Virus record (IMG/VR): IMGVR_UViG_3300007760_000743
Location: 1-64,000 of that record
DNA: 64,000 nt
Reading direction: 5' to 3' (one strand)
From: a virus
The notes beneath the pieces are model-generated. The model was not told where the DNA came from. It ran no database searches and saw nothing but the letters and a program-made list of their open reading frames with translations. Below, piece by piece: positions 8,022-64,000 of this stretch (position 1 is its first letter; every line of letters begins with the position of its first letter). A program made the position numbers and the translations under genes.

Positions 8022-8905
8022 GAGTCTCGGATTTAGACTTTGTTTTTATAAGTTATGCTGAACCAAACAAAGAAGAGAATTGGGCAGACTTGTTAAGCAA
8101 AGTGCCGTGGGCAAAGCGTGTTGACGGAGTTAAAGGATTTGATTCAGCACACAAAGCCGCGGCAGAAAAAGCAGAAACAGATTTTTTTATTTCAGTTGAT
8201 GGAGACAATATTATAGATGAGAGTTTTTTATTACAAACTTTAGATTGGTCTAAAACAGATCCAAAAGCCGTACATCGTTGGCGAGCAAGAAATAATGTTA
8301 ATAATTTAGTATATGGCAATGGTGGTTTGGTAGGATGGCCACGTGAAACTTGTTTGCAAATGAAAACACACGAAAACGCAAAAGATGAAAAAGCAGAAAT
8401 AGATTTTTGTTGGACAGTACCTCATGAAAATTTACATAATTGTTATTCAACTACTGTTATTAATGCAACACCACAACAGGCTTGGATAGCAGGTTATAGA
8501 GAAGGTGTTAAGATGAGTTTAAATCAAGGTAAACATATACCACCACAAAATTTTATGCGTGTTATACAAGGTAGCAATCTTAGAATACTAACCACGTGGA
8601 TGACTGTAGGTGCAGATGTTGAGTATGGCAAGTATGCTATGTTAGGAGCAAGAATGGGTTGTTATTCAACTACTGTGGATTCAACCGAATTTATACAAAT
8701 TAGAGAGTTAGATAAAATGGCAGATTTATTTGCAAATGGTATAGTTGAAGATAAAGTAGATGAAGATTTAGAAGTATATGGCAATAGTCTTAAGCAAAGA
8801 ATAGATATACCTTGTGAAAATTTTGATGAAGACCAAAGCAATTTTTTTAAATTTGTAATGCCACGCCCATTCAACACAGGAGTACAAGACCGTGAGTACA
8901 AGTAA
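8006..8905 (+). CDS. Glycosyltransferase-like protein (GT-A)
   Basis: 299 aa. DFVFISYAEPN at the start, then an alternating helix segment (AHKAAAEKAETDFFISVDGDN) with a DGDN metal/nucleotide motif near residues 71-74, and a later YGNGGLVGWP loop. The same series (VFISYDEP, AxxxAAA, YGWGG) occurs in the second half of the 18598-19914 protein, so these are homologs. Many marine phage GT-like proteins share this pattern. It overlaps the first radical SAM gene by 14 bp, which ties it to that operon. Confidence 0.6.
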   Translation: MADRVRVSDLDFVFISYAEPNKEENWADLLSKVPWAKRVDGVKGFDSAHKAAAEKAETDFFISVDGDNIIDESFLLQTLDWSKTDPKAVHRWRARNNVNNLVYGNGGLVGWPRETCLQMKTHENAKDEKAEIDFCWTVPHENLHNCYSTTVINATPQQAWIAGYREGVKMSLNQGKHIPPQNFMRVIQGSNLRILTTWMTVGADVEYGKYAMLGARMGCYSTTVDSTEFIQIRELDKMADLFANGIVEDKVDEDLEVYGNSLKQRIDIPCENFDEDQSNFFKFVMPRPFNTGVQDREYK

Positions 8906-10262
8906 TTATAAAGCAGATGCAGAGTTGGCTAAAAGTTTACTTGATAATGTTTCACCAACTATGTGTTTGGCAAAATGGAATCAAGTTTCATTACACTTGC
9001 CTACTGGATTAACAAACAGTTGCTATCATCCACCTTTACATGAAATAGATGCAACAAAATTAGAAGATAATCCTGCGGCACTACATAATACAGCAGAAAA
9101 ATTAAATCAAAGACAACAAATGCTTAAAGGAGAACGGCCTGAGGGTTGTTCATATTGTTGGAAAATGGAAGACACAGGCGAAATGTCAGATAGACATTAT
9201 CGTTCTGGTGAACCATGGGCCATGCAAGACTTTACAGCAATTAAACAAAATCCAATGGACGAACGTTGGACACCGAGATATGTGGAAGTAAACTTTAATA
9301 ATGCTTGTAATTTTAAGTGTTCTTATTGCTCACCACAATTCTCGACAACGTGGGGGAAGGAGATTGCTGTATATGGCCAATATCCAACATCTCCTCCCCA
9401 CAATGCACCTGAACACTTTCAAGGAAGAAAACGTCCAATACCACATAAAGAAGATAATCCTTATGTTACTGCTTTTTGGAAGTGGTGGCCTACATTATAT
9501 AAAAATTTAAAACATTTTCGTATGACAGGTGGTGAACCTATGATGGACAATAACACATATAAAGTATTTGAATACGTTATTAATAATCCAAAACAAGACT
9601 TACACTTAAACGTAACCAGTAATATGTGTCCACCTAATAACAAATTAAAAAACAAATATTTTGATATGGTTAAGAAAATCTGTATTGAGGAGAAAGTTGA
9701 ACATTTCATGCAATTTGTTTCAGTTGATGCATGGGGTAAACAAGCAGAATATATTAGAAATGGATTAGAATTTAATCGTATGTGGGATAATGTAGATGAA
9801 TTTTTGGATCGTATACCAGTACGTAATTCAGTTACTTTTATAATCACATACAATAATCTTAGTGTTACAAGTTTGGATAAGTTATTAGAAGGTATTTTAG
9901 AATTACGAAAACGACATAGTAAAACGTATCAACGAGTATGGTTTGATATACCATTGCTTAGACAGCCTGCATGGCAACAGATAACATTATTGCCTGAGGC
10001 ATATCAAGCAATACATGAAGCCAACATAGAATATATGAGAGAAAATTCTGGAGAAGATAAAGGATTACACATATTCAAAGACTTTGAGATTCAAAAAATG
10101 TTACGCAATTTAGCTTATTGGCGTAAAAATGCAGACACTAGTACGCAAACTAAAAAGAACTTTTACGCATTTTTTAACGAACATGATCGTAGACGCTTAA
10201 CAAACTTTGAAACAGTATTCCCAGAAATGTCAGAATTTTGGCAGGAGTGTAAAAACGCATGA
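8892..10262 (+). CDS. Radical SAM protein, twitch/SPASM-like type (subfamily B)
   Basis: 456 aa. Radical SAM motif CNFKCSYC has Cys139, Cys143 and Cys146; GGEP is at 213-216. The N-terminal ~100 residues have a second Cys set (Cys25, Cys44 and CSYCW with Cys86/Cys89), which I take as an auxiliary Fe-S cluster placed N-terminal to the barrel. The C-terminus carries the DxxR..FPE tail shared by its paralogs. It belongs to a subfamily with the next gene: both have GERPxGCxYCWKxED and NPYVxAFxxWW and lack the CxxPW start of the others. SAM-dependent radical chemistry is certain at family level; the substrate is unknown. Confidence 0.85.
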   Translation: MSTSNYKADAELAKSLLDNVSPTMCLAKWNQVSLHLPTGLTNSCYHPPLHEIDATKLEDNPAALHNTAEKLNQRQQMLKGERPEGCSYCWKMEDTGEMSDRHYRSGEPWAMQDFTAIKQNPMDERWTPRYVEVNFNNACNFKCSYCSPQFSTTWGKEIAVYGQYPTSPPHNAPEHFQGRKRPIPHKEDNPYVTAFWKWWPTLYKNLKHFRMTGGEPMMDNNTYKVFEYVINNPKQDLHLNVTSNMCPPNNKLKNKYFDMVKKICIEEKVEHFMQFVSVDAWGKQAEYIRNGLEFNRMWDNVDEFLDRIPVRNSVTFIITYNNLSVTSLDKLLEGILELRKRHSKTYQRVWFDIPLLRQPAWQQITLLPEAYQAIHEANIEYMRENSGEDKGLHIFKDFEIQKMLRNLAYWRKNADTSTQTKKNFYAFFNEHDRRRLTNFETVFPEMSEFWQECKNA

Positions 10263-11602: not shown

Positions 11603-12884
11603 GTACGGAGCAAAAGAGCCTGAGAAATTAAAAATAAAAGATATGACTCCTAAACAAAAGGAGTTATTAATAGAAAGTGACAATTTTTGTATGTTGCCAT
11701 GGATGCACCTTCACGCATTTCCAGATGGCAGAGCATATTCTTGTTGTTTTGCTTTAGACAAATTGCCAGTTGGTGATCTTAATAAACAATCAATGGCTGA
11801 AGTTTGGAATGGTGATAAAATGAAACAAATGCGTTTGAATATGTTAGCAAACAAACCATCACGTGAATGTTTTAAGTGTTATGATCAAGAAAAATCTGGA
11901 TTCTTTAGTTTACGTTTAAGTTCAAACAAACATTTTGGACATAATATTGATATGGTTAATACTACACAGTCAGATGGTTCAGCAGACTTTGTAATAAAAT
12001 ATTGGGATATACGTTTTAGTAATTTGTGTAACATGGCTTGTAGAAGTTGTGGTACATGGTTTAGTTCTAATTGGTACGAAGATCACAAAAAATTAACAGG
12101 TAGTCCACCACCCCATGCAAAAATTATGAAAGTTGGTAGGACTTCTAATGATATATGGGATCAATTATTAGAACAATTTGATCATGTGGAACAGTTTTAT
12201 TTTGCTGGTGGTGAACCAATTATAATGGAAGAACATCTAAGAATTTTAAAAGAATTAGACAAACGTAAAATGTATCATGTTAGGTTAATTTATAATACAA
12301 ATTTTAGTAAGTCCAAATTTAAAGGTACAGATATATTTGAATTATGGAATAAATTTGATTCAGTATCTATAGGAGCAAGTTTAGATGCAGAAGGACCAAG
12401 AGCAGAATTAATGCGTAAAGGAACTGTATGGAAAGATATTGTAGCAAATAGAAAACGTATGTTAGTAGTTTGTCCACAAGTTGATTTTTATATTAGTTCA
12501 ACAGTAGGATTAGTAAATGCATTACACGTTGTAGATTTTCATAAGAATTGGGTAGAGCAAGGATTGATTAAACCACAAGATTTTAATTTTAATTTATTGC
12601 AGTTTCCGTTATGGCAACGTATGGATCTTTTGCCAGAAGAATTTAAGCAACAAATAAAAGAAAAATACGAAAAACATATAGAATGGTTAAAAGCACAAGA
12701 TCATCTTACTCGTGCAACTAAAGGATATGAAAGTGCTTTGGATTATCTTTTTAGAAGAGATAAAACAGATAAACTTGAATTGTTTTTCAGAGAAACAAAG
12801 AAATATGATAAAATTAGAGACGAAACGTTTACTGATACGTTTCCAGAATGGAAAGAATTATTTGACAAATATGAAAAAAATTAA
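11592..12884 (+). CDS. Radical SAM protein, twitch/SPASM-like type (subfamily A), GTG start
   Basis: 430 aa. It begins with GTG at 11592, overlapping the previous gene by 11 bp; no earlier ATG fits. The FCMLPWMH opening, CC pair (Cys51/52) and CFKCYDQE (Cys93/Cys96) form the N-terminal auxiliary Cys set, then CNMACRSC (Cys146/150/153) is the radical SAM motif, followed by AGGEP. The C-terminal tail is RDETFTDTFPEW. This FCMxPW type is the arrangement annotated elsewhere as twitch-domain radical SAM protein. Confidence 0.85.
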   Translation: MAYEYGAKEPEKLKIKDMTPKQKELLIESDNFCMLPWMHLHAFPDGRAYSCCFALDKLPVGDLNKQSMAEVWNGDKMKQMRLNMLANKPSRECFKCYDQEKSGFFSLRLSSNKHFGHNIDMVNTTQSDGSADFVIKYWDIRFSNLCNMACRSCGTWFSSNWYEDHKKLTGSPPPHAKIMKVGRTSNDIWDQLLEQFDHVEQFYFAGGEPIIMEEHLRILKELDKRKMYHVRLIYNTNFSKSKFKGTDIFELWNKFDSVSIGASLDAEGPRAELMRKGTVWKDIVANRKRMLVVCPQVDFYISSTVGLVNALHVVDFHKNWVEQGLIKPQDFNFNLLQFPLWQRMDLLPEEFKQQIKEKYEKHIEWLKAQDHLTRATKGYESALDYLFRRDKTDKLELFFRETKKYDKIRDETFTDTFPEWKELFDKYEKN

Positions 12885-14217
12885 ACCAAACGAAGGTAAT
12901 AAAACATTCTGTATGGCGCCATGGGTGCATACTTATATGTCACCTCAAATGGAAAGGCGATTGTGTTGTGCAAGTCGTGAAGATTCCAATAATTTTAAAC
13001 AATATATTGACACACTACCAAAAGATTATAAGAGTAATATAAGTTCAGGTAAAATTAATTTAAAAAGTTTAGATGAGCATTGGAATTCTGAATATATGAA
13101 ATCAGTTAGGCTTAAATTAATGGCCGGAGAAGAAATACCACAATGTGCTACTTGTAATCATAAACTGCTTAATGCACAGGTGTATAGACAGCACTTCAAC
13201 AGATTTTACGGAAACGATATAGATAAAGCATTTGAGTCAACAGATGACACCGGTGTAACAACAATGAAAGTTGTTAGTTGGGATTATAGATTTTCTAATC
13301 TTTGTAATTTTAGTTGTAGAATGTGTGGTGATATGTTGAGTAGTAGTTGGGAGGCGGAAAATAAAAAACATCGCAAACCTGAACTATACACAAAATATAG
13401 AATTTGGGGTAGGAAAGATGTACAAGCAATATTGCAAAAGTTCCATGATCAAACAATGGTTAAAGAATTTACAAAAGCAATTGAAGAGAAAACTATTAGA
13501 GAGTTTTATTGGTGCGGTGGAGAACCGTTAATGTGGAAAATACACTGGATTGCCATGCAACGTGTAGTAGAATTAGGATATGCAAATCAAGTTTATGTTA
13601 GGTATAATTCTAATATGAGTAGAATTAAATTTTTTAAATTAAATTTATTTGATGATATTCTTTCAAAATTTCAAGATTGGCAAATAAATGCATCAATAGA
13701 CGGAACTGGCGAAATTGGTGAATATATTAGAACAGGTTTAAAATATAACGAATGGTATTCTAATATGCAATATGCAAAAAAATTCGTAAGGCATCCAAGA
13801 CAATTACAATTAGATCTTACTGTAACACTTCCTGGATTATTTGACTTAGAAAATATGTATGAATTACAAAAAGATTTGAAAATACCGTTATTATGTAAAA
13901 AAGTATTTACTTTTAGTCCTGATGTATTCATGAGTCCTTTGTTTATGCCTCAAAAATTATTACACAAAATGGTAGACAAAGTTAAAGACAAAGTTAAAAA
14001 CGAAAAACCTACAGTGTTTAACATGGCATTTTTAGAAGGATTGGACGATTTGAAAAATCATCCTACTAATGAACAACGTTATGATAAAGAAACTTGTATG
14101 AAAGGTTGGAAATCAGGAAAAGAAGAATGCGAGCGTTTAGATAAAATTCGTGGAACAGATATTACAAAAATATTAATAAAAGAACCAGAGGTATTGGAAT
14201 GGTGGAAAAGTATATAA
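12871..14217 (+). CDS. Radical SAM protein, twitch/SPASM-like type (subfamily A)
   Basis: 448 aa from the ATG at 12871; the frame stays open further upstream inside the previous gene, but this start gives the FCMAPWVH opening typical of the family. Auxiliary Cys: Cys14, Cys32/33, Cys92, Cys95. Radical SAM CNFSCRMC: Cys145/149/152; CGGEP follows. The CATCNHK segment has Asn-His where paralogs have Trp/Tyr-x-x-Glu, a local divergence. It overlaps its neighbours at both ends. Confidence 0.85.
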   Translation: MKKIKPNEGNKTFCMAPWVHTYMSPQMERRLCCASREDSNNFKQYIDTLPKDYKSNISSGKINLKSLDEHWNSEYMKSVRLKLMAGEEIPQCATCNHKLLNAQVYRQHFNRFYGNDIDKAFESTDDTGVTTMKVVSWDYRFSNLCNFSCRMCGDMLSSSWEAENKKHRKPELYTKYRIWGRKDVQAILQKFHDQTMVKEFTKAIEEKTIREFYWCGGEPLMWKIHWIAMQRVVELGYANQVYVRYNSNMSRIKFFKLNLFDDILSKFQDWQINASIDGTGEIGEYIRTGLKYNEWYSNMQYAKKFVRHPRQLQLDLTVTLPGLFDLENMYELQKDLKIPLLCKKVFTFSPDVFMSPLFMPQKLLHKMVDKVKDKVKNEKPTVFNMAFLEGLDDLKNHPTNEQRYDKETCMKGWKSGKEECERLDKIRGTDITKILIKEPEVLEWWKSI

Positions 14218-16562: not shown

Positions 16563-17113
16563 AAAAAATTAAAAAGTTAACATTTGATTGGCTTAAAAAA
16601 GTGGAGTTAGTTGAAATGAAATATTGTCATTTCAAAGAAGATCCTGTGAGGCCTGAATTGGATAATAAGTTTAGAAAAGATTGGGGTAGAAAAATATATG
16701 GTTTAAAACTTGGCAAAGATATTGTTGCGGTTATGTGCTTTGCCTTTACACACGAAATACCAAAGACGATAGAAGAATTAGATTTAATGAGTAAAGATGC
16801 TTTTATACAGGCAACTCATAGAGCAGGAATACAAGGCAATATTGCTATTGCTTATACAGTTTGGTCAAAGAAAAAAGGTGGTGGAAAAAGAATAATACAA
16901 GAAGTTTTTAAAATGATTAAAAAATCAAATCATTTAAATCGATTAGTTACATTATCACCATTAACAGATATGGCACGAGAATTTCATTTAAGGAATGGTG
17001 CTAAAGAATTACAAGTAAACAAAACCTCACAAAATTTTGAATATACAATTGAAAATAAATGGTGGAAAAATTATTTAAAACAAGCAAAAAAATGGTTTAA
17101 ATTAAAAAGATGA
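16559..17113 (+). CDS. GNAT-family acetyltransferase
   Basis: 184 aa. A VAVMCFAF strand is followed by GNIAIAYTVWSKKKGGGKRIIQEVFKMI, which has the strand-loop-helix form of the acyl-CoA site, with GGGKR in place of Q/RxxGxG. A later FHLRNGAKEL matches the strand-7 part of GNAT enzymes. It lies directly before the carbamoyltransferase gene with a 4 bp overlap. Likely transfers an acyl group to an amino or hydroxyl group on a small molecule, sugar or protein; the acceptor is unknown. Confidence 0.6.
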   Translation: MKKIKKLTFDWLKKVELVEMKYCHFKEDPVRPELDNKFRKDWGRKIYGLKLGKDIVAVMCFAFTHEIPKTIEELDLMSKDAFIQATHRAGIQGNIAIAYTVWSKKKGGGKRIIQEVFKMIKKSNHLNRLVTLSPLTDMAREFHLRNGAKELQVNKTSQNFEYTIENKWWKNYLKQAKKWFKLKR

Positions 17114-18573
17114 GAATATTAGGTATAAACTGTATGAATCACGATGCCGCAATGGCAGTAGTAGATTATAGTAGTGGTGTAGGTGAAATATTGTGGGCCG
17201 CTCATGCAGAACGTTATTCAAAAGTTAAAAATGATTTTTATTTAAATTGGCGAATAGTAAATGAAGCAATGACATATGGTCCTTTTGACAAAGTTGTTTA
17301 TTACGAAAAACCTTTATTAAAGAAAACACGACAATTTTATGCAGGACAATACAGTGATGCTTTAAGTTATACAGAAATGCCACAATGGCATTTAGATAAT
17401 TTTAAAATTAAAATAGATGAATATGTAAAACATCATGATAGTCATGCCGCGGCAGGATATTTTACTTCACCATTTCGAGAAGCAACTATTTTAACAGTGG
17501 ATGCAATAGGTGAATGGGATACAGTATCAATATCTACTGCTAACAAAGTTTGGATAGAACGAAAAGAAACTATAAAGTATCCACATAGTTTGGGCATATT
17601 ATATTCTGCATTTACACAACGTTGTGGATTAAAACCTGCAGAAGAAGAATATATTTTAATGGGAATGGCGGCTTATGGAAAACCAAGATATAAAGATGAT
17701 ATCTATGAAGACTTTGTGATACAATCACCTTTTAAATTAAAAAAGAATTTACATAGAGGGTTAAGTGATTGGCATCCAGAAGCAGATGTTATGGATATAG
17801 CCGCAAGTATACAATCAGTTCTTGAAGAATGTCTTGCAGATTTATGGCATAGAGCATCTAAGTATGGTAGCAGAAATTTAGTTTATGCAGGCGGAGTTGC
17901 TCTTAATTGTGCGGCAAACACTGCATTAGCAAATATGGGATTGTTTGATAACATTTGGATTATACCTAATCCAGGAGATGCAGGAAGTTCATTAGGGTGT
18001 ATTGCGGCATCAGAACAAAGACATTTAGATTGGAAAAATCCGTTCTTAGGACATAACATTGAAGGAGAATATCCAGTAGATAAAATTATAAAAGAATTAA
18101 CAGAAAATAAAATGGTAGGAGTTGCAAATGGTAGAGCAGAGTTTGGACCAAGAGCTCTTGGTAATAGATCTCTTTTAGCTGACCCAAGAGGATTGGAAAT
18201 TAAGGATATGGTAAATCAAATTAAAAGAAGACAAAAGTTTAGACCGTTTGCTCCTGCCATTTTAGAAGAGGATGTAAACGAGTATTTTAAGCTACCTAAA
18301 GGTGTTTTAAACACCCCTTATATGCAATATACAGCAACGTACACGCATGGTAAAGACTGTCCTGCCATAATACACTATGATAATACATCTAGGGTGCAAA
18401 CCGTCGCTAAAAGCGATAACGAAGGGTTTTATGAGTTACTTAAAGCATGGAAAAAGAAAACAGGTTGTCCAATATTGTTAAACACCAGTTTGAACATTAA
18501 GGGTATGCCAATGGTAAATGACACCAAAGATGGTAAAGACTGGACAGCCAAATATGGAGTAAAAGTACTATGA
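17110..18573 (+). CDS. Carbamoyltransferase (NodU/CmcH/TobZ family)
   Basis: 487 aa. HHDSHAAAGYF (Fe/metal-binding HxxxH of the Kae1-like domain), a DAIGEWD nucleotide loop, YAGGVALNCAANT, and EFGPRALGNRS with KFRPFAPAIL from the YrdC-like domain are all present. The family carbamoylates hydroxyl groups of sugars, antibiotics or, in some phages, modified cytosines. The C-terminus ends soon after LLNTSLNIKG, so it is shorter than TobZ-like enzymes (about 560-600 aa) and may lack the last helices. It is co-transcribed with the acetyltransferase before it and a GT-like protein after it. Confidence 0.85.
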   Translation: MRILGINCMNHDAAMAVVDYSSGVGEILWAAHAERYSKVKNDFYLNWRIVNEAMTYGPFDKVVYYEKPLLKKTRQFYAGQYSDALSYTEMPQWHLDNFKIKIDEYVKHHDSHAAAGYFTSPFREATILTVDAIGEWDTVSISTANKVWIERKETIKYPHSLGILYSAFTQRCGLKPAEEEYILMGMAAYGKPRYKDDIYEDFVIQSPFKLKKNLHRGLSDWHPEADVMDIAASIQSVLEECLADLWHRASKYGSRNLVYAGGVALNCAANTALANMGLFDNIWIIPNPGDAGSSLGCIAASEQRHLDWKNPFLGHNIEGEYPVDKIIKELTENKMVGVANGRAEFGPRALGNRSLLADPRGLEIKDMVNQIKRRQKFRPFAPAILEEDVNEYFKLPKGVLNTPYMQYTATYTHGKDCPAIIHYDNTSRVQTVAKSDNEGFYELLKAWKKKTGCPILLNTSLNIKGMPMVNDTKDGKDWTAKYGVKVL

Positions 18574-18597
18574 TAAAACTTAATGGTGGAGACTTTT

Positions 18598-19914
18598 ATG
18601 GCGTTTGATAGTGTACAGGTCAGATTTAAAGATACAGGATTTTTTCCAAGTCCTTTTGCTAACACTAGGGTAGTACCTTTTGTTAAGAGTTATTTTGAAA
18701 TACTTAAGAGTGTAGTAGGGGAGATTAAGACAGAGTACTTCTGGTTTTTTTCTAGTTTCATTAATATGAAAACTATAGATATAGATTACATTCCAGAACA
18801 ACACGAAAAAAATCAAATACACGTATGGTACAACACGCACCCTAACGGTGGAACAAATAAAGAAGGTAATATTATGTTGATACCTACAAAAGAATTTAAA
18901 GAACAGATGTACAACATACAATATTTGCGAGATTTTCAAGACATTAATTATCATGCTCATGCTAATCTTTTTCAAAACATAATACCAAAAATTGCATTTA
19001 AATTAAGTGATCCAATTACCGCATACAATAACAGTGAAGAATACTATACATGGCTGTATAATAAAGAATTGGATCCTGACAAAGTGCCAAATTTTTACCC
19101 TAGCTTCTGGGAAGACGTTAAACTGTATTCTTGGGGTAACACAAAAGATATTATGTTGGTACCAAAGCAAGATAATTTAAAACAATTTTATGATGTAGAA
19201 AGAAGTGTACATTATGACTTAGACTATAATATAAATCCAATGGACATAGTTTTTATATCGTATGACGAACCTAGTGCTGAAAAACGATATAATAAATTAA
19301 AAGAAAAATTTCCTAGAGCTAAATGGAGCAAAGGTGTACAAGGACAGACACTTGCTTACATGGCCGCGGCACAGATGAGTAAAACAGAATATTTCTTTGC
19401 TGTGTTCCCAAAGAGCGAAATAGTAGATAGTTTTAAATTCGATTTTCAACCAGAGAGGTTAAGGAACCCTTGTCATTACATATTTGATTGTTATAATTCT
19501 GTGATAGATCTAACATATGGTTGGGGAGGCGTTATACTTTACAATAAAGATCTAGTAATGAAAACAACAAAGCCAGGTTTAGATTTTACATTGTCACAAG
19601 CACATCATTCAGTACCTATATTGTCTGCAATTAGTAACTGTAACGAAACACCATTGTTAGCTTATAGGTCATCATTTAGGGAAGTTATAAAATTATTACA
19701 AATGAAACCAACAGTGGAATCTAAATACAGACTTAAAAAATGGAGTACGTTGGGTAATGGTGAGAATGCTAAATGGATATATCAAGGTGCAGTTGATGGT
19801 CAGAAGCATTACAACAACTACAAAAATGATTACAATAAATTAATGTATTCTTATGATTATGAATGGATTAAAGAGCAGTTTAAGTCTTTGTACCCAGAGC
19901 AAACTTTGGATTAA
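18598..19914 (+). CDS. Glycosyltransferase-like protein, two-part
   Basis: I chose the ATG at 18598 because a GGTGGAG ribosome site precedes it; an in-frame ATG at 18583 lacks one. The N-terminal half (VWYNTHPNGG, then FFSSF) has no clear family. The second half repeats the pattern of the 8006-8905 protein (DIVFISYDEP, AYMAAAQMSKTEYFFAVF, YGWGGVILY) but without a clear DxD, so its catalytic state is doubtful. Its end overlaps the convergent epimerase gene by 35 bp. Confidence 0.55.
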   Translation: MAFDSVQVRFKDTGFFPSPFANTRVVPFVKSYFEILKSVVGEIKTEYFWFFSSFINMKTIDIDYIPEQHEKNQIHVWYNTHPNGGTNKEGNIMLIPTKEFKEQMYNIQYLRDFQDINYHAHANLFQNIIPKIAFKLSDPITAYNNSEEYYTWLYNKELDPDKVPNFYPSFWEDVKLYSWGNTKDIMLVPKQDNLKQFYDVERSVHYDLDYNINPMDIVFISYDEPSAEKRYNKLKEKFPRAKWSKGVQGQTLAYMAAAQMSKTEYFFAVFPKSEIVDSFKFDFQPERLRNPCHYIFDCYNSVIDLTYGWGGVILYNKDLVMKTTKPGLDFTLSQAHHSVPILSAISNCNETPLLAYRSSFREVIKLLQMKPTVESKYRLKKWSTLGNGENAKWIYQGAVDGQKHYNNYKNDYNKLMYSYDYEWIKEQFKSLYPEQTLD

Positions 19915-20881
19915 TATTTAAATTATTAAAATAAAAAGGTTGTTCTAAAAACCAATTAATATATTTTGGAATACCTTCTTCTATATCTATTGTTGGATTA
20001 AAATTAAACATAGTTTTTGCTTTATCACTGTTTAGTGTATCTCTGTTTGGATAGAATGAATCATGTGGTTTAGTAATAATATTTCCAGTACCTATTTTTG
20101 ATTTTATTATCTCTGCCGCGTCTATAATTTTTCTACCATTACCACGAGTACAATTAAATGTTTCGTTGAGTACTTCGTTTGTAGTAGCTAATGAAAAGTA
20201 TTTGGCAACATCCAGTACATTTGAGAAGTCTAATTTATTATCAGGTCCCTGCACAGTCATATCACCGGTCGTTAATACACTCTTTAACATTTGGCTGATG
20301 ACTCTGCATATAGTATCACGTGTGCCATAAAGTGCTGATGGTCTCATAATAATATAAGGTAAGCCATACTCTCTGTTCCATATCTTGCACATAGTTTCAC
20401 CTTGTTTTTTGTATGAGCCGTACAATGTATTTGGTTCTGGTATAACTTCTTCGTCTGGTATTTGATTATTAAACTCTCCATATACCATACTGCTTGAAGC
20501 ATAAACTATCTTTTGTACCTTATGTTTGACACATAGATCTAATATGTATGCAGTAGCAGTAATCATATTATTAGTTGCATCTAACACATTTCTTTTAACC
20601 ATTTTTGCATTTGGAAAAGTAGCAACATGAATAATTCTGTCTGGCTTAAAATCTTCAAATGTTTGTTCCATAAATTGAAAGTTTTCTATTTGTCCTATGT
20701 ATTCTTTATCTGTTTTTGTAATTTCTTTTCTTTGATTAAGCACAGGATAGTATTCCCAATCTGGAAACGTGTAATATTGATGATAACAATCTACAACTCC
20801 TATTGTGTGTCCTTCTGATTTTAATTGTTGACAAATATGGCTACCTATAAATCCATAGCCCCCTAATATTAGTATTCTCAT
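19880..20881 (-). CDS. NAD-dependent sugar epimerase/dehydratase (extended SDR)
   Basis: 333 aa from ATG at 20881, which overlaps the upstream stop as ATGA. MRILILGGYGFIGSH holds the GxxGxxG NAD site; YGSYKKQGE holds the catalytic Tyr-x-x-x-Lys; ASSSM supplies the Ser. This family epimerises or dehydrates nucleotide sugars. It is the last of a four-gene sugar cassette (aminotransferase, oxidoreductase, deacetylase, epimerase, in transcription order). The product sugar cannot be told from sequence. Confidence 0.8.
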   Translation of the reverse strand: MRILILGGYGFIGSHICQQLKSEGHTIGVVDCYHQYYTFPDWEYYPVLNQRKEITKTDKEYIGQIENFQFMEQTFEDFKPDRIIHVATFPNAKMVKRNVLDATNNMITATAYILDLCVKHKVQKIVYASSSMVYGEFNNQIPDEEVIPEPNTLYGSYKKQGETMCKIWNREYGLPYIIMRPSALYGTRDTICRVISQMLKSVLTTGDMTVQGPDNKLDFSNVLDVAKYFSLATTNEVLNETFNCTRGNGRKIIDAAEIIKSKIGTGNIITKPHDSFYPNRDTLNSDKAKTMFNFNPTIDIEEGIPKYINWFLEQPFYFNNLNINPKFALGTKT

Positions 20882-21519
20882 AGTGTTCTCCATTTGCATT
20901 CGAAAGCTTCAGCATATTTAGAGTCAGTCATCTGTCCTCTGTATGCCGCAAGTCCTTTTATATTGTGTAATAATGTATCAGAGAAATAACTGTCATAACA
21001 ACTAACTAACTCGATTTTTTTATCTATGTAATCAGATATGTCTATAAACACATTTGGGTTAAATTGTTGATTTTTATTACTGTATGGTCCGCCCTCCATC
21101 AACCAAAACTCTCCTTTCCATCTACGTAAAGAAGAATTAACAATGTGAAAAGTATTCACATGATCCTGATGATGGTCTCCTGGACTGTGTGTTATTATAA
21201 GATCATAGTTGTCATTATAAACAATGTCGTCCATTTTCTTAACAAACTTACTATTCCATTCTAGAACTGGCCTTCCATCGTTATCGGTAGGATTTTCAAG
21301 TATATTAAATTTAATTCCAAATAGTTCTTCAGACTTTTTGTATTCTGTCTGCATCTTTTCTCTGTCTCTCCAAGTACTTGGCTTTGGTGCGTTATCATCT
21401 CTACAAATAACAATGTCAATGTGAGAACCTTCTGCTTGATACTTTAATAATGTACCTGAGCAACCTAGTTCAACATCGTCTGGATGTGCACCTATGGCTA
21501 ATATTTTTTTGAAGGACAT
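20878..21519 (-). CDS. LmbE/PIG-L family deacetylase
   Basis: The ATG at 21519 is chosen for its AGGAGAGG ribosome site; the frame is open further upstream. 213 aa. GAHPDDVELG near residue 10 is the zinc-binding PHPDDxE motif of GlcNAc deacetylases, and GDHHQDHVNT provides the HxxDH part. These zinc enzymes remove N-acetyl groups from GlcNAc conjugates or sugar nucleotides. In this cassette it would free an amino group on the sugar, perhaps one added by the aminotransferase. Overlaps both neighbours. Confidence 0.8.
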   Translation of the reverse strand: MSFKKILAIGAHPDDVELGCSGTLLKYQAEGSHIDIVICRDDNAPKPSTWRDREKMQTEYKKSEELFGIKFNILENPTDNDGRPVLEWNSKFVKKMDDIVYNDNYDLIITHSPGDHHQDHVNTFHIVNSSLRRWKGEFWLMEGGPYSNKNQQFNPNVFIDISDYIDKKIELVSCYDSYFSDTLLHNIKGLAAYRGQMTDSKYAEAFECKWRTL

Positions 21520-22397
21520 ACAACCTCTCCTGTTTTTAAACTTTTCTCCATACACTCTACAATGTATGTAACTTTTTTAATATGTTCCATGCTTGAATCT
21601 GGTAATTTGTCTTTCTCGCAATAGTCTATAAATGCTGATATTTGTCTCTGCATAGGAGACGTAGATTCAGTAAATGTTTTGTCTAGATCCATATGTTGTA
21701 TCTGTCGACCATCTTCTATTGTTTGGCTAATCCATTTGCTTTTGTTCTCAGCATCATTCCAAATAAGTGTACCTTTGTCTGTTATAACAGAAATATCCCT
21801 AACTTTCTTATGGTAGTACCAACCCATTTGTAATTGTACAGTTACTTTGCCATACTTTAAATTACAAGTGACAAAGTCAGGTTGTGTTTGTTTTATAATG
21901 TGTATGCCTGTGCTATGTATCTCATCTGGCATAGTACCTAACAAGTTATCTAAAATGGCTATGTCGTGTGGTGCATAGTGTAATATTGGATTAATATCTT
22001 TTTGTAATCTTCCCCATGCCAATCTACGATGTTCAATGTGTAATATTTCTTTGTCAACAACTGTTTGTTTTAAAAAATCAAAGTGTTCATTATATAACAA
22101 TATGTGTCCTGCCATTAATTTTGCATTAGCAGTATAAGGTGCTATCTCGTTATATTCAGCCATGTTCATAAACGCAGGTTTTTCAACTAAACAATCAATA
22201 CCTCTTCTTAAAAATACTTTTGCAAGGGTTATATGTGTTTGTGCAGGAGTGGCAATTATTACACCATCAATTAAACTAGGAACAATTGCATCTATATTGT
22301 CATTTAAATCATATAGAGATACTTGTAGATTCATTTTTTTAATTGTATCTACAATTTTACTTCCCCAATATCCTGTACCTATTACTGCTAATCTCAT
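21498..22397 (-). CDS. Gfo/Idh/MocA family oxidoreductase
   Basis: 299 aa. The N-terminal MRLAVIGTGYWGSK gives the NAD(P)-binding Rossmann motif, and CLVEKPAFMN gives the diagnostic EKP motif of the family. In sugar pathways such enzymes oxidise nucleotide sugars at C3 before transamination, for example the WbpB type. The aminotransferase gene lies directly upstream with a 4 bp overlap, supporting oxidation-then-amination. Substrate inferred from context only. Confidence 0.8.
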   Translation of the reverse strand: MRLAVIGTGYWGSKIVDTIKKMNLQVSLYDLNDNIDAIVPSLIDGVIIATPAQTHITLAKVFLRRGIDCLVEKPAFMNMAEYNEIAPYTANAKLMAGHILLYNEHFDFLKQTVVDKEILHIEHRRLAWGRLQKDINPILHYAPHDIAILDNLLGTMPDEIHSTGIHIIKQTQPDFVTCNLKYGKVTVQLQMGWYYHKKVRDISVITDKGTLIWNDAENKSKWISQTIEDGRQIQHMDLDKTFTESTSPMQRQISAFIDYCEKDKLPDSSMEHIKKVTYIVECMEKSLKTGEVVCPSKKY

Positions 22398-23452
22398 GTT
22401 GCTTCTTTAATAGTTTTTATTATAGTTTTAACTTCGCTATCTGTCAAATATTGATGTACAGGAATTGCCAATGCATTACTGCTACAATATTCAGAATTTG
22501 GATAAGAATTTTCATCTTTGTATGTTTCTGTTTTGTGTAAAGGTGTTGGATAGTATCTTCTAGACTGTATTCCCTTGCCTAGTAAAGCCTTTTCGATGTT
22601 GTTAATTTTTTTATGTTTTATTATGTATTGATGATAGACGTGTAAACTGTTAATATTTTGGACTGGTATTTCCACAGACTTCCATAGGGTTCCATTGTAC
22701 AGTGTAGCATTTGCTCTACGTCTGGCATTGTGTTTGTCTAATTCTGGTAGTTTGTTAAGAAGCACTTCTGCTTGTATCGAATCCATTCTTGCATTCCATC
22801 CAACCATATGCATTTTAAATCTAGTAGACTGACCATGGTTTCTCAATTGCCTGATTGTTTTTAAATATTTTTCATTGCCTGTGACAGCACCCGCATCTCC
22901 CCAACAACTTAAATTTTTTGTAGGATAGAAACTAAAACAAGTTAAGTCAGCAACACTACCCACTCTTTTGCTTTTATAAAAAGCACCTGTGCTTTGTGCA
23001 GAATCTTGTATAACTGGAACATTAAACTTTTTTAATTCGTCTATATCGCATACATTTCCATAAAGATCTACACCAATGATTGCTTTAGTTTTATTGTTTA
23101 TTTTTTTAGCGACTTCCTTTGGATCTATACACATATCATTAAGACTTATGTCAGCAAATACTGGTGTGGCGCCTACTTGTTTTATAACCTCAACTGTACT
23201 GACCCAAGTGTATGGTACAGTAATAACTTCGTCTCCTGGTCCAATACCTAAGGCTAGAAGTGATAAGTGTAGTGCAGATGTGCATGAACTTACTGCAACA
23301 CAATGATTTGTGCCACAGTATTGAGCAAACTGCTTTTCAAATTCTTTTACAGCAGGCCCGTTGATAAAACTTTTAGACTTCCATGTTTCGGCAAATGCCT
23401 TAGATGGATTTTTTAGCTTTCTTTCGTAGCCAAAACCAGATAGTGCTATCAT
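22394..23452 (-). CDS. DegT/DnrJ/EryC1/StrS aminotransferase
   Basis: 352 aa. PLP enzyme of the sugar-aminotransferase family: SCTSALHLSLLAL phosphate-binding loop, DSAQS (residues 150-154) contacting the cofactor, and Lys179 in FYPTKN as the Schiff-base Lys. It converts keto-sugar nucleotides to amino sugars with Glu as donor. It is the first gene of the sugar cassette in transcription order and begins where the small gene at 23452-23796 ends. Confidence 0.85.
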   Translation of the reverse strand: MIALSGFGYERKLKNPSKAFAETWKSKSFINGPAVKEFEKQFAQYCGTNHCVAVSSCTSALHLSLLALGIGPGDEVITVPYTWVSTVEVIKQVGATPVFADISLNDMCIDPKEVAKKINNKTKAIIGVDLYGNVCDIDELKKFNVPVIQDSAQSTGAFYKSKRVGSVADLTCFSFYPTKNLSCWGDAGAVTGNEKYLKTIRQLRNHGQSTRFKMHMVGWNARMDSIQAEVLLNKLPELDKHNARRRANATLYNGTLWKSVEIPVQNINSLHVYHQYIIKHKKINNIEKALLGKGIQSRRYYPTPLHKTETYKDENSYPNSEYCSSNALAIPVHQYLTDSEVKTIIKTIKEAT

Positions 23453-33261: not shown

Positions 33262-33290
33262 ATTGTATACTACTTTTGCGGGTATGTCAA
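33262..33290 (-). promoter_or_regulatory. Sigma70-type promoter for queE: TTGACA, 17 bp, TACAAT
   Basis: On the minus strand TTGACA is at 33290-33285 and TACAAT at 33267-33262 with a 17 bp spacer. It overlaps the 3' end of the upstream gene and gives a leader of about 35 nt before the queE ATG. Confidence 0.75.
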
Positions 33291-34190: not shown

Positions 34191-34204
34191 CTGGTTTAAG
34201 CTAT

Positions 34205-36436: not shown

Positions 36437-36826
36437 TTACTTTCCTTTTTTCTTATCCAGTCTAACTACGTTGCCTTCTGTTAAGTGTCCTACAGATTCT
36501 CTTTGTATATCGTTGTGTCTGAATTCTGCCCAATATAATTCAAATGCAACACCGTCTTCTAAGCCTTCAAATGAATGGAATAATTGTGGTTTGACAGCAG
36601 TAAAATCGCCAGGGTTTAAAATAGTTTCGTCTACTAAATTGTAATCTTTTTGCCATACTTTAATTTTTAGTTTTCCTGTCATACAATAGAAGCCATTCCA
36701 TTTGTATTCGTGTTTGTGTTTAGAGCAAACACCACCTTTTTTATAATCTATTCTATGAAATTCTAATGAACTGTTTGCGAGAATAAGTTCTGTAGATCCC
36801 CAAATTTTTCCTGCTATATTTGACAT
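36437..36826 (-). CDS. Cupin domain protein
   Basis: 129 aa. A single cupin barrel with CSKHKHEYKWNGFYCMTGKLKIKV (first cupin motif, two His and a Glu) and PGDFTAVKPQLFHSFEG (second motif with His). Related in form to mannose-6-phosphate isomerase C-terminal domains. A promoter lies six bases before the ATG, with no ribosome site, suggesting leaderless translation. It probably heads the transcript into the amidinotransferase. Confidence 0.75.
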   Translation of the reverse strand: MSNIAGKIWGSTELILANSSLEFHRIDYKKGGVCSKHKHEYKWNGFYCMTGKLKIKVWQKDYNLVDETILNPGDFTAVKPQLFHSFEGLEDGVAFELYWAEFRHNDIQRESVGHLTEGNVVRLDKKKGK

Positions 36827-37336: not shown

Positions 37337-37365
37337 ATTTTACTATATTTGATGTAAATTTTCAA
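37337..37365 (-). promoter_or_regulatory. Sigma70-type promoter: TTGAAA, 17 bp, TAAAAT, 5 nt before ATG
   Basis: On the minus strand TTGAAA is at 37365-37360 and TAAAAT at 37342-37337 with 17 bp between. Five bases remain before the ATG at 37331. The -35 lies inside the end of the radical SAM gene. Confidence 0.6.
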
Positions 37366-43581: not shown

Positions 43582-44713
43582 CTCTTCTCCATTGTTCTCC
43601 CGTGCCTGTCATAATGTCAATCATTCTATCTATTGTACCGTCTGTCCAATCAGATATTTGACCTATACTAGGGGATGGTTTCATTAATAATACTTTTAAT
43701 TTTTCCATTGCGTCTCTACCGCTCCATGGAATATACATTCTTGTTTCATCGTTAGCAAATACTTCTGGAAATGTTCTGTATGCTGGAAACAATACGTTTG
43801 TGCCTAATGAGTCTGCTTCTGATACTGTATTGGATGTCCAATCTTGTAATGCACAATTAAACAATACTCTTGAATCTGCAAGTATGTTGTAGTATTCATT
43901 CTTTTTTAAATTTTCATATATTTTTAATGTACCGTCTTGTTCCATTATTCTTGCTCTGTTTACATAAGAAGTGTTATTACTTCTTAAAGGACCGCCACAA
44001 CATATTGCAAATTCTACTTCTGGTAATTTTGGATTTGCTTTCCAGTGATCAATCATATCCATAAAAAATCCTGGTTGTTTTTCTTGATCCCATCTTGCTC
44101 CAAATATTACTCTCATTTTTCTATCATTAAATGCTTTTCTATTAGGAACTCTTTCTTGTACTTCTTCTTTGCCAAAACTTAAACCAGATATATTGTATAT
44201 AGGTGCTTTCCAGTTTGCTATACGCATATGTGCAACCATTTCTTCGTTTGTTGCAAGTATATTGACATTTGGAATTTCATTACACATCTGTTCATATAAA
44301 CTCATCCATTTGCTCATTCCCCAAACGTGTACAAAGTCATCAGGATCAATTGCCTGTGCTAAACATCTCAAATATATTGTTGGCATATGCTCTTTGTCAA
44401 CTTGGTGTAAAATATATGGAAGAGATTCCATTCCTGGTTGGAACATATCCTCAAAAAATATTATATCCTCGGAAGTAACTTCGCCAGCTTTCATCATTTG
44501 TACAAGATTCATCATTTGGCTCATACCAAAATAACTTCTGCCATGTGCATCTAAAACTTGTCCTGTTACTATTGCTTTTGAATCGTCAATAGTAGTACCT
44601 GGAACAATCACATAGTCAATATCACGTTTTTTATAAACACGTTTAGTCCATTCTGTTAATTGTAATGTATATCGTCCTTCATAGGGTTCTAAACCCATGT
44701 AAAATATTTTCAA
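43538..44713 (-). CDS. GT-B-type glycosyltransferase-like protein
   Basis: 391 aa. MKIFYMGLEPYEGRYTLQL opens a Rossmann domain; IFGARWDQEKQPGFFMDMI opens the second, as in GT-B phage enzymes; a late NTVSEADSLGTNVLFP stretch matches the donor-site E-x7-E region. It overlaps galE by 44 bp downstream. The acceptor is unknown: glycosylated DNA bases, fibres or host glycans are options. Confidence 0.7.
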   Translation of the reverse strand: MKIFYMGLEPYEGRYTLQLTEWTKRVYKKRDIDYVIVPGTTIDDSKAIVTGQVLDAHGRSYFGMSQMMNLVQMMKAGEVTSEDIIFFEDMFQPGMESLPYILHQVDKEHMPTIYLRCLAQAIDPDDFVHVWGMSKWMSLYEQMCNEIPNVNILATNEEMVAHMRIANWKAPIYNISGLSFGKEEVQERVPNRKAFNDRKMRVIFGARWDQEKQPGFFMDMIDHWKANPKLPEVEFAICCGGPLRSNNTSYVNRARIMEQDGTLKIYENLKKNEYYNILADSRVLFNCALQDWTSNTVSEADSLGTNVLFPAYRTFPEVFANDETRMYIPWSGRDAMEKLKVLLMKPSPSIGQISDWTDGTIDRMIDIMTGTGEQWRRDGKHYRTPVSESKY

Positions 44714-45864
44714 TTTAGTACCTCTTTGTATAATTCTGGAAATACTTTTTCGCTATCTAATTTTCTTCTTAAATCCATTTTTTTAATGTTTTGTCTTGTT
44801 AGTTCTATATTAGCATTAAAACCATTTTCAGTCAAATACTTTAAGCAATTTTCCAAACTATTTTGTAGGTAAAATCCTGGTTGTTCAGCAATTTTGTTTT
44901 CAAACATAGTAATAACTTCTTCTTTTATATTTTTTGGTAAATGTCTAACATTTAAAAACAATGGTGTATATAATGGTCCTATTATAAAACTATTATTGTG
45001 AAATCCTATCGATTTAAAGTAATCAATGCAATCAAATATGCTTTTGTAGTTTAAAATGAAATACAACATATTAAAACTAATTTTATGATTAAGTGTTTGT
45101 ATGTATTTTAGATTTTTTATAAAGTCTTTCCATGAACTATGGTATCTAATATATTCATATTCCTTATCCATGGATTCAACACTTACCGTCCAATGGACAT
45201 TTTTAAATTTACACAATAATTCAAATACTCCAGTTTTTGTTGAACTTAAATTTGTGTTTACTCTTATATGTACATCTGGATTTTGTTCTAATAATAATTT
45301 TAAAAATTCACGATTTTCGTTTATAAGTAAAGGTTCACCACCAGCAAGATAGATGTTTTTTAATTTTTTAATATTTTTAAAGACATATTGTTTTACTTTT
45401 TCAACATTTCCTTTTTCAAACTCTTGTTTAATGTTTAATTCTTGTGCCCATTTACTACTGTATTCTGGGTAACAATAAACACAGGCCTGATTGCATTTAT
45501 TATTCCATCTGAGATCAACATGACTTAAATCAAAGTTATCTTTTTTGTCTAGTAATTTATTGTCAATGTGTGGGCCTAATTCTTTTGCATAATATAGTCT
45601 ACTACTAATACTTTCAAAATTTGTTGCACGATCTTTTTCTTGAAAATAACAACCTGCACAATTATTTGGGAATTCTTTGTTTAGCATTTGAGCTTTAATC
45701 TCAAGATTCTTTTCTGATTGAAGAATATCTTCTATGCTATTTTGATGTATGTTGCCAATAGTTTCTTTTGAGATAATGCAGTTTTTTACTACACCGTCAG
45801 GTTCTAGTTCAAAACCTGTCCAAGGTAATACACAGAAATTTTTTTCTAGTATTTTTCGTGACAT
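44710..45864 (-). CDS. Radical SAM protein, twitch/SPASM-like type
   Basis: 384 aa. FCVLPWTG opening (Cys11), Cys29, CAGCYFQE (Cys69/72), then CNQACVYC (Cys124/128/131) and AGGEP. Tail MDLRRKLDSEKVFPEL. The GN segment pairs it with 41414-42550. A 4 bp overlap links it to the glycosyltransferase downstream. It lies after a TCTAAATA late-type box. Confidence 0.85.
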   Translation of the reverse strand: MSRKILEKNFCVLPWTGFELEPDGVVKNCIISKETIGNIHQNSIEDILQSEKNLEIKAQMLNKEFPNNCAGCYFQEKDRATNFESISSRLYYAKELGPHIDNKLLDKKDNFDLSHVDLRWNNKCNQACVYCYPEYSSKWAQELNIKQEFEKGNVEKVKQYVFKNIKKLKNIYLAGGEPLLINENREFLKLLLEQNPDVHIRVNTNLSSTKTGVFELLCKFKNVHWTVSVESMDKEYEYIRYHSSWKDFIKNLKYIQTLNHKISFNMLYFILNYKSIFDCIDYFKSIGFHNNSFIIGPLYTPLFLNVRHLPKNIKEEVITMFENKIAEQPGFYLQNSLENCLKYLTENGFNANIELTRQNIKKMDLRRKLDSEKVFPELYKEVLN

Positions 45865-63433: not shown

Positions 63434-63440
63434 ATATGAA

Positions 63441-63448
63441 TATTTATT
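63441..63448 (-). promoter_or_regulatory. Late-type promoter AATAAATA, 7 nt before ATG
   Basis: On the minus strand AATAAATA overlaps the end of the radical SAM gene and lies seven bases before the ATG at 63433. Confidence 0.5.
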
Positions 63449-64000
63449 GAAATATCCAAGAGTGTAAAAATGGATCAACGTCTATTAGTTTTAAGTGTCT
63501 ATGCGAATCTTGTTCAGTAATTTCGTCTTTTAACGCATTATGTGATGATTTTACATATTTCGCTGTCGAGTATTTTTTGATTAGATAGTTTATTTCACTT
63601 CTGAATTGTGAAGCATAATAAACAGATACAGGAAATTTTAATAGTTTTTTAATATTATTAATGTATGTTTCTCTGTATTCCAATGGTACACTACATTCTA
63701 AAAAAATTTCGGGTTCATTTAAAATAGATATATTAATATGATTTGAATATTGCTTCATCCATGAGCAAGTTTCGTATAATTTGTGAGAAGTTAAATTACT
63801 TGCAACTAAATTAAATTGTAGAAAGTTTGCATTCTCACTTACAAATTTAACGTTTTGTTCAAATTCATCCCAACCTAAAGGATAACGTACATATGTACCA
63901 AGTATACCAACAGCATCACAAGAACAAATTATTGTTAAATTTTCAAATTTTTTAATTATTTCTTTCCATGGAGCAGGCAGTCTTTTTAGATTTGTGTTAA
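63444..64000 (-). CDS. Radical SAM protein of the same family, cut by right window edge
   Basis: The frame is open to the window end, so only the C-terminal ~185 residues are seen. NTNLKRLPAPW, then TIICSCDAVGILGTYVRYPLGWDEF correspond to the NTNLS..VSVE/D..EYIR...W block of the paralogs. The tail has DSHRHLKLIDVDPFL, matching the family end. The CxxxCxxC region lies outside. It would be the eleventh family member in the window. Confidence 0.8.
   Translation of the reverse strand, partial: NTNLKRLPAPWKEIIKKFENLTIICSCDAVGILGTYVRYPLGWDEFEQNVKFVSENANFLQFNLVASNLTSHKLYETCSWMKQYSNHINISILNEPEIFLECSVPLEYRETYINNIKKLLKFPVSVYYASQFRSEINYLIKKYSTAKYVKSSHNALKDEITEQDSHRHLKLIDVDPFLHSWIFQ

What the first reader, a model, noticed from the sequence alone, without database searches (positions are those of the whole stretch)
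8892..64000. Eleven paralogous radical SAM proteins with an N-terminal Cys set and a shared C-terminal tail
Ten complete genes (8892, 10259, 11592, 12871, 14199, 28382, 37343, 41414, 44710, 48141) and one cut at 63444 share one architecture. The N-terminus has Cys and CC (or single Cys) plus CxxCW/Y, followed by CxxxCxxC and GGEP, and a DxxR..FP-type tail closes the protein. In most SPASM/twitch enzymes the auxiliary Cys lie after the barrel; here they precede it. Such a number in one 64 kb phage window points to a dedicated chemistry programme. No precursor peptide was seen next to them, so small molecules, sugars or virion proteins are likelier substrates. They form subgroups: 8892/10259; 28382/37343; 41414/44710; and the FCMxPW group.
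Basis: partly seen in the sequence, partly recalled or inferred. Interest (0 to 1): 0.88.

Follow-up and report, generated by a model that had tools for sequence, protein, structure and literature searches.

The report
Phage radical-enzyme battery for sugar chemistry
A virus of bacteria carries eleven relatives of one poorly understood radical-making enzyme family, five of them in a recurrent gene group with likely sugar-transfer enzymes next to its tail genes, which suggests that it builds unusual sugars on itself or its host.

Summary
In detail: ten complete radical SAM genes plus one cut at the window edge (complete in the 79,997-bp record), all with four N-terminal Cys before CxxxCxxC. The architecture is already catalogued: 11 of 11 exceed the cut-off of NCBIfam NF033640 (N-terminal twitch radical SAM; no function assigned). 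The N-terminal domain carries the first half of the SPASM motif and matches the C-terminal twitch of BtrN, so domain order is reversed. A marine phage with 12 radical SAM genes was reported before. New here is the setting. Five paralogs belong to an overlapping gene run that starts at a perfect sigma-70 consensus beside tail-fibre-like genes: small protein, two glycogenin/GT8-like proteins, small protein, GT-A-fold protein, five radical SAMs, SGNH-like protein. The arrangement recurs in dozens of virus contigs; 78 of 80 sampled viral loci hold a glycosyltransferase-like gene, Vibrio phage K566 has GT8 genes among its radical SAMs, and some Bacteriovoracaceae-type loci hold O-antigen-type export genes nearby. 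Best reading: radical tailoring of sugars for virion or host-surface glycans; modification of virion proteins is the main rival. No cluster, substrate or reaction was shown.

The parts
5832..5860 (+). Perfect sigma-70 consensus TTGACA-N17-TATAAT, 6 nt before the first ATG of the gene run
   Evidence: 34 of 57 viral loci with this first gene have a match of 10-12 of 12 upstream, 20 of the 34 at the same offset within 2 nt
5867..6187 (+). Small protein (106 aa), neighbour family 5, first gene of the run; function unknown
   Evidence: present in 59 of 80 viral loci; no Pfam or PHROG match
6184..6948 (+). Glycogenin/GT8-like putative glycosyltransferase (family 1, copy 1)
   Evidence: profile vs PDB: glycogenin, E 0.0042, weak; no Pfam match; family in 62 of 80 viral loci
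6941..7741 (+). Glycogenin/GT8-like putative glycosyltransferase (family 1, copy 2)
   Evidence: no Pfam match
7725..8021 (+). Small protein (98 aa), family 20, between the two putative glycosyltransferase types
   Evidence: no match
8006..8905 (+). GT-A-fold protein, putative glycosyltransferase (family 2), with conserved DGDN
   Evidence: model pLDDT 88.9; VIA Z 10.3, rmsd 3.0, 141 aligned, to B4GALNT1; IspD-type nucleotidyltransferases follow at Z 8-9; family in 64 of 80 viral loci
8892..10262 (+). N-twitch radical SAM 1
   Evidence: NF033640 334 bits
10259..11602 (+). N-twitch radical SAM 2
   Evidence: NF033640 295 bits
11592..12884 (+). N-twitch radical SAM 3 (modelled)
   Evidence: NF033640 403 bits; model pLDDT 95.8, pTM 0.92
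12871..14217 (+). N-twitch radical SAM 4
   Evidence: NF033640 314 bits
14199..15365 (+). N-twitch radical SAM 5
   Evidence: NF033640 359 bits
15358..16179 (+). SGNH-hydrolase-like protein (family 11), last gene of the overlapping run
   Evidence: family in 19 of 80 viral loci; no Pfam or PHROG match; SGNH label from reading the sequence
17110..18573 (+). Carbamoyltransferase (family 8; NodU/TobZ type, label recalled)
   Evidence: Pfam Carbam_trans_C E 8.6e-53; family in 24 of 80 viral loci
18583..19914 (+). Second family-2 protein
   Evidence: same cluster as 8006
19880..20899 (-). NAD-dependent epimerase/dehydratase
20878..21555 (-). PIG-L-type de-N-acetylase
21498..22397 (-). Gfo/Idh/MocA oxidoreductase
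22394..23452 (-). DegT/DnrJ/EryC1 aminotransferase
   Evidence: E 5.7e-103
28382..29539 (-). N-twitch radical SAM 6
   Evidence: 208 bits
35434..36435 (-). Amidinotransferase (StrB/SxtG/AGAT family)
   Evidence: profile of 4 sequences vs PDB: SxtG E 1.7e-49, inosamine-phosphate amidinotransferase E 1.3e-45
36437..36826 (-). Cupin
37343..38521 (-). N-twitch radical SAM 7
   Evidence: 275 bits
41414..42550 (-). N-twitch radical SAM 8
   Evidence: 253 bits
42550..43581 (-). NAD-dependent epimerase (GalE-like by reading)
   Evidence: Pfam Epimerase E 1.3e-45
44710..45864 (-). N-twitch radical SAM 9
   Evidence: 268 bits
48141..49313 (-). N-twitch radical SAM 10
   Evidence: 335 bits
63444..64000 (-). 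N-twitch radical SAM 11, cut by the window edge, complete in the record
   Evidence: 189.6 bits; 363 aa
3190..5812 (+). Two Ser/Thr-rich proteins upstream of the run: 3190-4839 tail-fibre-like; 4844-5812 without any match, virion role guessed from position
   Evidence: PHROG partial matches to tail fiber and virion structural families for 3190, none for 4844; S+T 20% and 26% against a background of 13%

Best explanation
Each protein is a radical SAM enzyme with two iron-sulphur clusters. The SAM-cleaving 4Fe-4S cluster sits on CxxxCxxC in the barrel; an auxiliary cluster is held by four Cys of a twitch domain that lies before the barrel instead of after it. The 5'-deoxyadenosyl radical takes a hydrogen from a C-H bond of a sugar (nucleotide-linked or already transferred), and the auxiliary cluster probably takes up the second electron, as proposed for BtrN, giving oxidised, epimerised or deoxygenated sugars. 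In the gene run 5867-16179 the five paralogs work with two GT8-like proteins and one GT-A-fold protein. Scattered paralogs add steps together with the aminotransferase, oxidoreductase, deacetylase, amidinotransferase, carbamoyltransferase and epimerases. The product would be a modified glycan put on the tail proteins encoded just upstream, or on the host surface. Shown by computation: family membership, Cys pattern, domain order, overlapping genes, recurrent promoter-like site, recurrent glycosyltransferase-like neighbours. Inferred: the clusters, the reaction type, the sugar substrate, the place of display.
For: NF033640 over cut-off in 11 of 11. Pfam SPASM on the N-terminus in 5 of 10. BtrN C-terminal twitch 183-257 aligned to profile positions 9-80, E 1.5e-5; in SkfB the barrel match precedes the twitch match, the reverse of the query, though the twitch part scores only 3.3 bits. 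Four N-terminal Cys in 477-485 of 485; motif never after the core, 0 of 485. Model of 11592 pLDDT 95.8; barrel like anSME Z 12.6 and BlsE Z 12.5. 78 of 80 viral loci hold a gene of family 1, 2 or 9; family 9 is Pfam GT7, E 5.5e-21. Family 2 has a GT-A fold. Vibrio phage K566: two Pfam GT8 genes (E 8.2e-8, 2.5e-12) among four N-twitch-like radical SAM genes, a fifth 10 kb away; two of the five over cut-off. An O-antigen/TarG-type ABC permease (family 39) lies within 1.4 kb of an N-twitch radical SAM gene in L100, L105, L107 and L108 and about 7 kb away in L104, L106 and L116. In 67 non-phage-like genome loci, Glycos_transf_1 in 5 and Glycos_transf_2 in 3 of 110 near neighbours, neither among the 25 families shown for 110 far ones. 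Overlapping genes 5867-16179 and promoter-like site.
Against: No substrate, cluster or product was shown. Structural neighbours also include peptide-acting enzymes (anSME, CteB, SuiB), and no distance between the Cys could be measured. The glycogenin match of family 1 is weak (E 0.0042), and the GT-A fold of family 2 is shared with nucleotidyltransferases such as IspD (Z 8-9). The 80 viral loci were chosen by likeness to 8892, so they are not independent. In the neighbour test ABC_tran (4) and Epimerase (3) led on the far side and are not among the 25 families shown for the near side, so sugar genes as a whole are not cleanly enriched; other radical SAMs (15 near, 4 far, of 110 each) and Asp/Asn beta-hydroxylases (3 near) fit protein modification as well. 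The amidinotransferase family has only 6 members in the loci examined. Three of the five K566 genes fall below the family cut-off.
Confidence: 0.5

Rival explanations
1. The enzymes modify amino-acid side chains of virion proteins (epimerisation, crosslinks, oxidation), preparing or stabilising the Ser/Thr-rich tail proteins; the glycosyltransferases decorate the same proteins.
For: The run lies directly after tail-fibre-like genes; S+T content 27% in family 4 and 22% in family 3 against 13% background (common in fibre proteins anyway, recalled); barrel resembles peptide-acting anSME, CteB and SuiB; Asp/Asn beta-hydroxylases near genome-collection copies.
Against: N-terminal domain is twitch and matches BtrN, an aminocyclitol dehydrogenase; copies also lie in loci with O-antigen-type export genes and without the tail-gene families; a consensus sigma-70 promoter points to expression apart from the tail genes.
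Confidence: 0.25
2. The gene run remodels host surface polysaccharide during infection (blocking of further phages), not the virion.
For: Host-type sigma-70 consensus, perfect 12 of 12, recurrent; nucleotide-sugar type genes elsewhere in the window; O-antigen-type export neighbours in bacteria.
Against: Recurrent position beside tail-fibre-like genes, family 3 in 53 and family 4 in 55 of 80 viral loci; I noticed no flippase or polymerase among the window genes annotated, but did not search for them as such.
Confidence: 0.2
3. RiPP-like maturases acting on a small peptide, for example the 106-aa first gene or the small gene between the glycosyltransferase-like genes.
For: Two small protein families recur in the run (family 5 in 59, families 12/20 in 37 of 80 viral loci).
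Against: No further domain beyond SPASM, radical SAM and Fer4_12 (which overlaps the barrel) in the Pfam scans; the small proteins are 98 and 106 aa in the window, with only three invariant residues in 26 family-5 sequences.
Confidence: 0.05

Closest known systems
NCBIfam NF033640, N_Twi_rSAM (twitch domain-containing radical SAM protein)
   Same: Match over cut-off for 11 of 11; N-terminal twitch then barrel
   Different: The model line names no function; it says nothing of a gene run with glycosyltransferases
BtrN (2-deoxy-scyllo-inosamine dehydrogenase, twitch)
   Same: Four-Cys twitch matched by profile, E 1.5e-5
   Different: Twitch is C-terminal in BtrN and N-terminal here; substrate here unknown
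Marine phage genome TARA_ERS488813_N000010 (PMC5332604; passages and section 14 read)
   Same: T4-like genome with 12 radical SAM genes
   Different: The section read treats them as part of Fe-S-related metabolism and gives neither domain order nor glycosyltransferase linkage; the subfamily of those 12 was not checked here
Mycobacteriophage virion glycosylation (Freeman 2023; seen only as cited in PMC12619734)
   Same: Glycans on virion proteins of phages
   Different: Radical SAM enzymes are not part of that system as far as I recall

Membership tests
NF033640 N_Twi_rSAM | Score over curated cut-off of 170 bits | tested here: met
   10 of 10 at 208-403 bits; eleventh 189.6
NF033640 N_Twi_rSAM | Radical SAM CxxxCxxC | tested here: met
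   11 of 11 and 485 of 485 in the set
NF033640 N_Twi_rSAM | Twitch Cys set before the barrel | tested here: met
   Four Cys in 11 of 11; CX9-16GX4C..CX2C in 8 of 11 and 399 of 485; 12871, 37343 and 48141 keep the Cys but not the strict motif
Canonical SPASM/twitch radical SAM enzymes | Auxiliary Cys domain after the barrel | tested here: not met
   Motif after the core in 0 of 485
Canonical SPASM/twitch radical SAM enzymes | Auxiliary Fe-S cluster present | not testable with these tools
   No coordinates and no metal data
BtrN-type sugar/cyclitol dehydrogenases | Four-Cys twitch site | tested here: met
   By sequence only: profile match to 4m7t, E 1.5e-5; four Cys conserved
BtrN-type sugar/cyclitol dehydrogenases | Twitch at the C-terminus | tested here: not met
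   Twitch match is N-terminal
BtrN-type sugar/cyclitol dehydrogenases | Acts on a sugar or aminocyclitol | not testable with these tools
   Only neighbourhood evidence
RiPP maturases | Precursor peptide and RiPP recognition element | tested here: inconclusive
   No RRE match in Pfam scans; small recurrent genes present but without match
Phage virion glycosylation systems | Glycosyltransferase genes beside virion genes | tested here: inconclusive
   GT-A-fold and weakly GT8-like genes beside a tail-fibre-like gene
Phage virion glycosylation systems | Glycan on virion protein | not testable with these tools
   Needs mass spectrometry

The most novel reading that the evidence does not exclude
A widespread group of large phages encodes a gene run in which glycosyltransferases hand a growing glycan to a set of radical SAM enzymes that rewrite single C-H bonds, each paralog at its own position, so that phages wear or impose glycans whose chemistry changes by shuffling radical SAM paralogs.
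Probability: 0.3. Interest if true: 0.82.

Novelty: new variant of a known kind. Interest (0 to 1): 0.58.

Why it matters
A radical SAM family with no assigned function gains a testable context: recurrent linkage to glycosyltransferase-like genes and, in phages, to tail-like genes. If right, phages are a rich source of radical sugar-tailoring enzymes, and receptor recognition or competition between phages may depend on glycans that ordinary annotation misses.

Tried and rejected
Rejected: that the domain layout is unrecorded (NF033640). Rejected: that eleven copies is a record (16 over cut-off in G027, one of them with a TAG inside). Not found: SAR11 chromosomal homologs; the two Pelagibacter-labelled contigs carry phage gene orders, and only the best 80 matches were kept. 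Annotated phages hold few relatives: tblastn of 48144 found 3 and of 11592 2 of 50,697 records.

Led nowhere: Pfam for 5867, 6184, 6941, 7725, 8006, 15358 and 18583; PDB profile search for families 2 and 6 and PDB search of one family-15 protein. PDB structure matches hardly cover the N-terminal 108 residues of the model, so the second cluster could not be tested by fold. A general excess of promoter-like sites was absent (95 against 92 expected); only the perfect consensus stands out (5 in the window against 0.36 expected). Literature: ten searches listed no paper that I recognised as treating N-terminal twitch radical SAM enzymes linked to glycosyltransferases in phages; listings were capped, and most subscription journals are not held. 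Passages of PMC11002830 were read and not used.

Rows dropped: L010 and L082-L085 (taken as the same virus as the window) left out of the tree and Cys census; L010 left out of the promoter count. Six phage-like contigs of 74 left out of the neighbour test, and one more locus without a clustered radical SAM ORF, leaving 67; some of the 67, such as L117, may still be phage contigs. 110 of 351 near and 110 of 138 far neighbours were sampled at random. One search covers 50 records, mostly the longer ones among those behind the loci, all of which carry the family by choice.
Full report
What is there. The window (32% G+C on average, no tRNA genes found) is part of a virus record of 79,997 bp. Its DNA polymerase is closest to the phages Phosso and Atu_ph07 (469 and 490 kb; 50.6% and 45.5% identity), so the record is probably a fragment of a larger genome. 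All ten complete radical SAM genes and the cut eleventh were confirmed. A 137,583-bp record (G049, 99% identical at 48144) carries eleven over-cut-off matches with nearly the same scores and is taken as the same virus.

Family. Every protein exceeds the curated cut-off of NCBIfam NF033640, whose name I read as N-terminal twitch radical SAM. Pfam finds SPASM at the N-terminus of 5 of 10. C-terminal segments of other families (SkfB, GeoRSP, STM4011) align to the N-terminus here in some of the proteins, and profile searches of the PDB place the C-terminal twitch of BtrN there, E 1.5e-5 with 73 sequences and 4e-4 with ten. The SPASM/twitch Cys motif and the proposed role of the auxiliary cluster were read in passages of PMC6231123 and PMC9012708. 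In 485 proteins the four Cys are nearly universal and the second Cys of the CC pair is not; the half-SPASM motif is N-terminal in 399 of 485 and after the barrel core in none. A model of 11592 from 73 sequences is confident (pLDDT 95.8); its barrel resembles anSME, BlsE, CteB, SkfB, viperin, MoaA and DesII, and long matches in the viral structure library include a protein of Vibrio phage KVP40. Cys distances could not be read.

Diversity. In the tree of 485 proteins each of the five tandem paralogs has a nearest relative in another contig at 0.10-0.38 substitutions per site, while its nearest paralog in this virus is 2.7-4.6 away. They are an old set kept together, not a recent expansion. The minus-strand paralogs 28382, 37343, 41414, 44710 and 63444 have only distant relatives in the set, and 48141 one near relative; but the set was gathered by likeness to the plus-strand type, so this is not a fair census. 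In 50 virus records the family gives 1 to 21 matches at E 0.001; the largest record has 16 over cut-off.

Setting. Clustering of neighbours shows a recurrent order: tail-fibre-like gene, Ser/Thr-rich protein, 106-aa protein, two glycogenin/GT8-like proteins, small protein, GT-A-fold protein, then radical SAM genes. Of the 44 viral loci that reach 20 kb, 32 hold five or six radical SAM genes. Of 80 viral loci, 62 have family 1, 64 family 2 and 14 family 9; 78 have at least one of these. The family-9 group (14 loci) has one or two radical SAM genes in the fetched stretch beside GT7-type proteins. Vibrio phage K566, a distant case at 22% identity, has two GT8 genes among four N-twitch-like radical SAM genes and a fifth 10 kb on; two of the five are over cut-off. 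The family-2 model has the GT-A fold, which nucleotidyltransferases share. In the window the genes overlap from 5867 to 16179 (with 12871 as the start of the fourth radical SAM gene), and a perfect sigma-70 consensus ends 6 nt before the first ATG. Of 57 loci with that first gene, 34 have a match of 10 or more of 12 upstream, against 1 of 62, 10 of 62 and 2 of 54 for families 1, 2 and 4. The spacing suggests a leaderless transcript; this is inference.

Bacteria. Of 74 loci from the genome collection, 48 by my count bear Bdellovibrionota-type names, with Oligoflexia placed there from memory; six of the 74 have phage gene orders. In L100 (Bacteriovorax), L104, L106, L107 and L108 (Bacteriovoracaceae), L116 (Bacteriovoracales) and L105 (labelled Deltaproteobacteria), the same stretch holds an O-antigen/TarG-type ABC permease family (one member, of L116, was matched), within 1.4 kb of a radical SAM gene in four of the seven and about 7 kb away in three. 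Six of these seven also hold the carbamoyltransferase family, and L105 and L108 the DegT family, both shared with the window. A further family there, 15, reads like a group-1 glycosyltransferase, but one member found nothing in the PDB. In sampled neighbours of 67 loci, Radical_SAM (15 against 4 of 110) and Glycos_transf_1/2 (5 and 3, not among the families shown for far) are commoner near than far, while ABC_tran and Epimerase lead on the far side. The control is therefore only mildly in favour.

Interpretation. The element shared by two phage groups, K566 and part of the bacterial loci is glycan machinery, and the twitch resembles that of a cyclitol dehydrogenase. Hence sugar tailoring is preferred. 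Protein modification is not excluded. Whether the glycan ends on the virion or the host cannot be told: the place beside tail-like genes favours the virion, the host-type promoter favours neither clearly.

Prior work. PMC5332604 (passages and section 14 read) reported 12 radical SAM genes in a 183-kb T4-like marine phage and placed them in Fe-S-related metabolism. PMC12619734 (abstract and passages) describes four putative glycosyltransferase groups among core genes of an aquatic jumbo phage lineage, with no mention of radical SAM in its main text; its relation to this virus was not checked. The family is thus known and unsolved; the gene run with its glycosyltransferase-like members is the addition made here.

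Noticed in passing
window 32333-33220, 39840-40550, 49313-50764 (minus strand): QueE-like radical SAM (weak Pfam support), GTP cyclohydrolase I (E 3.8e-48) and a protein that reads like a tRNA-guanine transglycosylase/DpdA but has no Pfam match: a possible 7-deazaguanine DNA modification set.
   Followed up: partly
window 35434-36435 (minus strand): Amidinotransferase of the StrB/SxtG type in a phage, next to a cupin and a phosphoribosyltransferase; relatives also lie near radical SAM genes in L134 and L160.
   Followed up: partly
L001:7771-11394 (record 67,771-71,394), minus strand: 1,207-aa subtilase (Peptidase_S8 E 2.3e-31) with what reads like a lipoprotein signal and an autotransporter-like C-terminus, encoded in the virus record.
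   Followed up: partly
window 895-2490: Glycine-rich protein with a C-terminal stretch that reads like a Hint/intein-type domain; Pfam shows only the glycine-rich part, below its cut-off.
   Followed up: no
window 5832-5866 and viral loci with family 5: Promoter-like -10 box 6 nt before the ATG in the window and at the same offset within 2 nt in 20 loci in all: possible leaderless mRNA at the head of the gene run.
   Followed up: partly
window 33270-34229 and 34205-35116: Tandem duplicated genes of unknown family with a closely similar N-terminal stretch and no Pfam match.
   Followed up: no
window 62190-62570 and 45883-46413: Thioredoxin-like protein with a signal-peptide-like start (by eye) and a peroxiredoxin, possible redox support for Fe-S enzymes.
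   Followed up: no
OZ196521.1 171,561-172,010 (Vibrio phage K566, L161:20733-21182): Gene annotated as PagP-like lipid A acylation protein close to the radical SAM/GT8 genes, which would fit a change of the host envelope.
   Followed up: no
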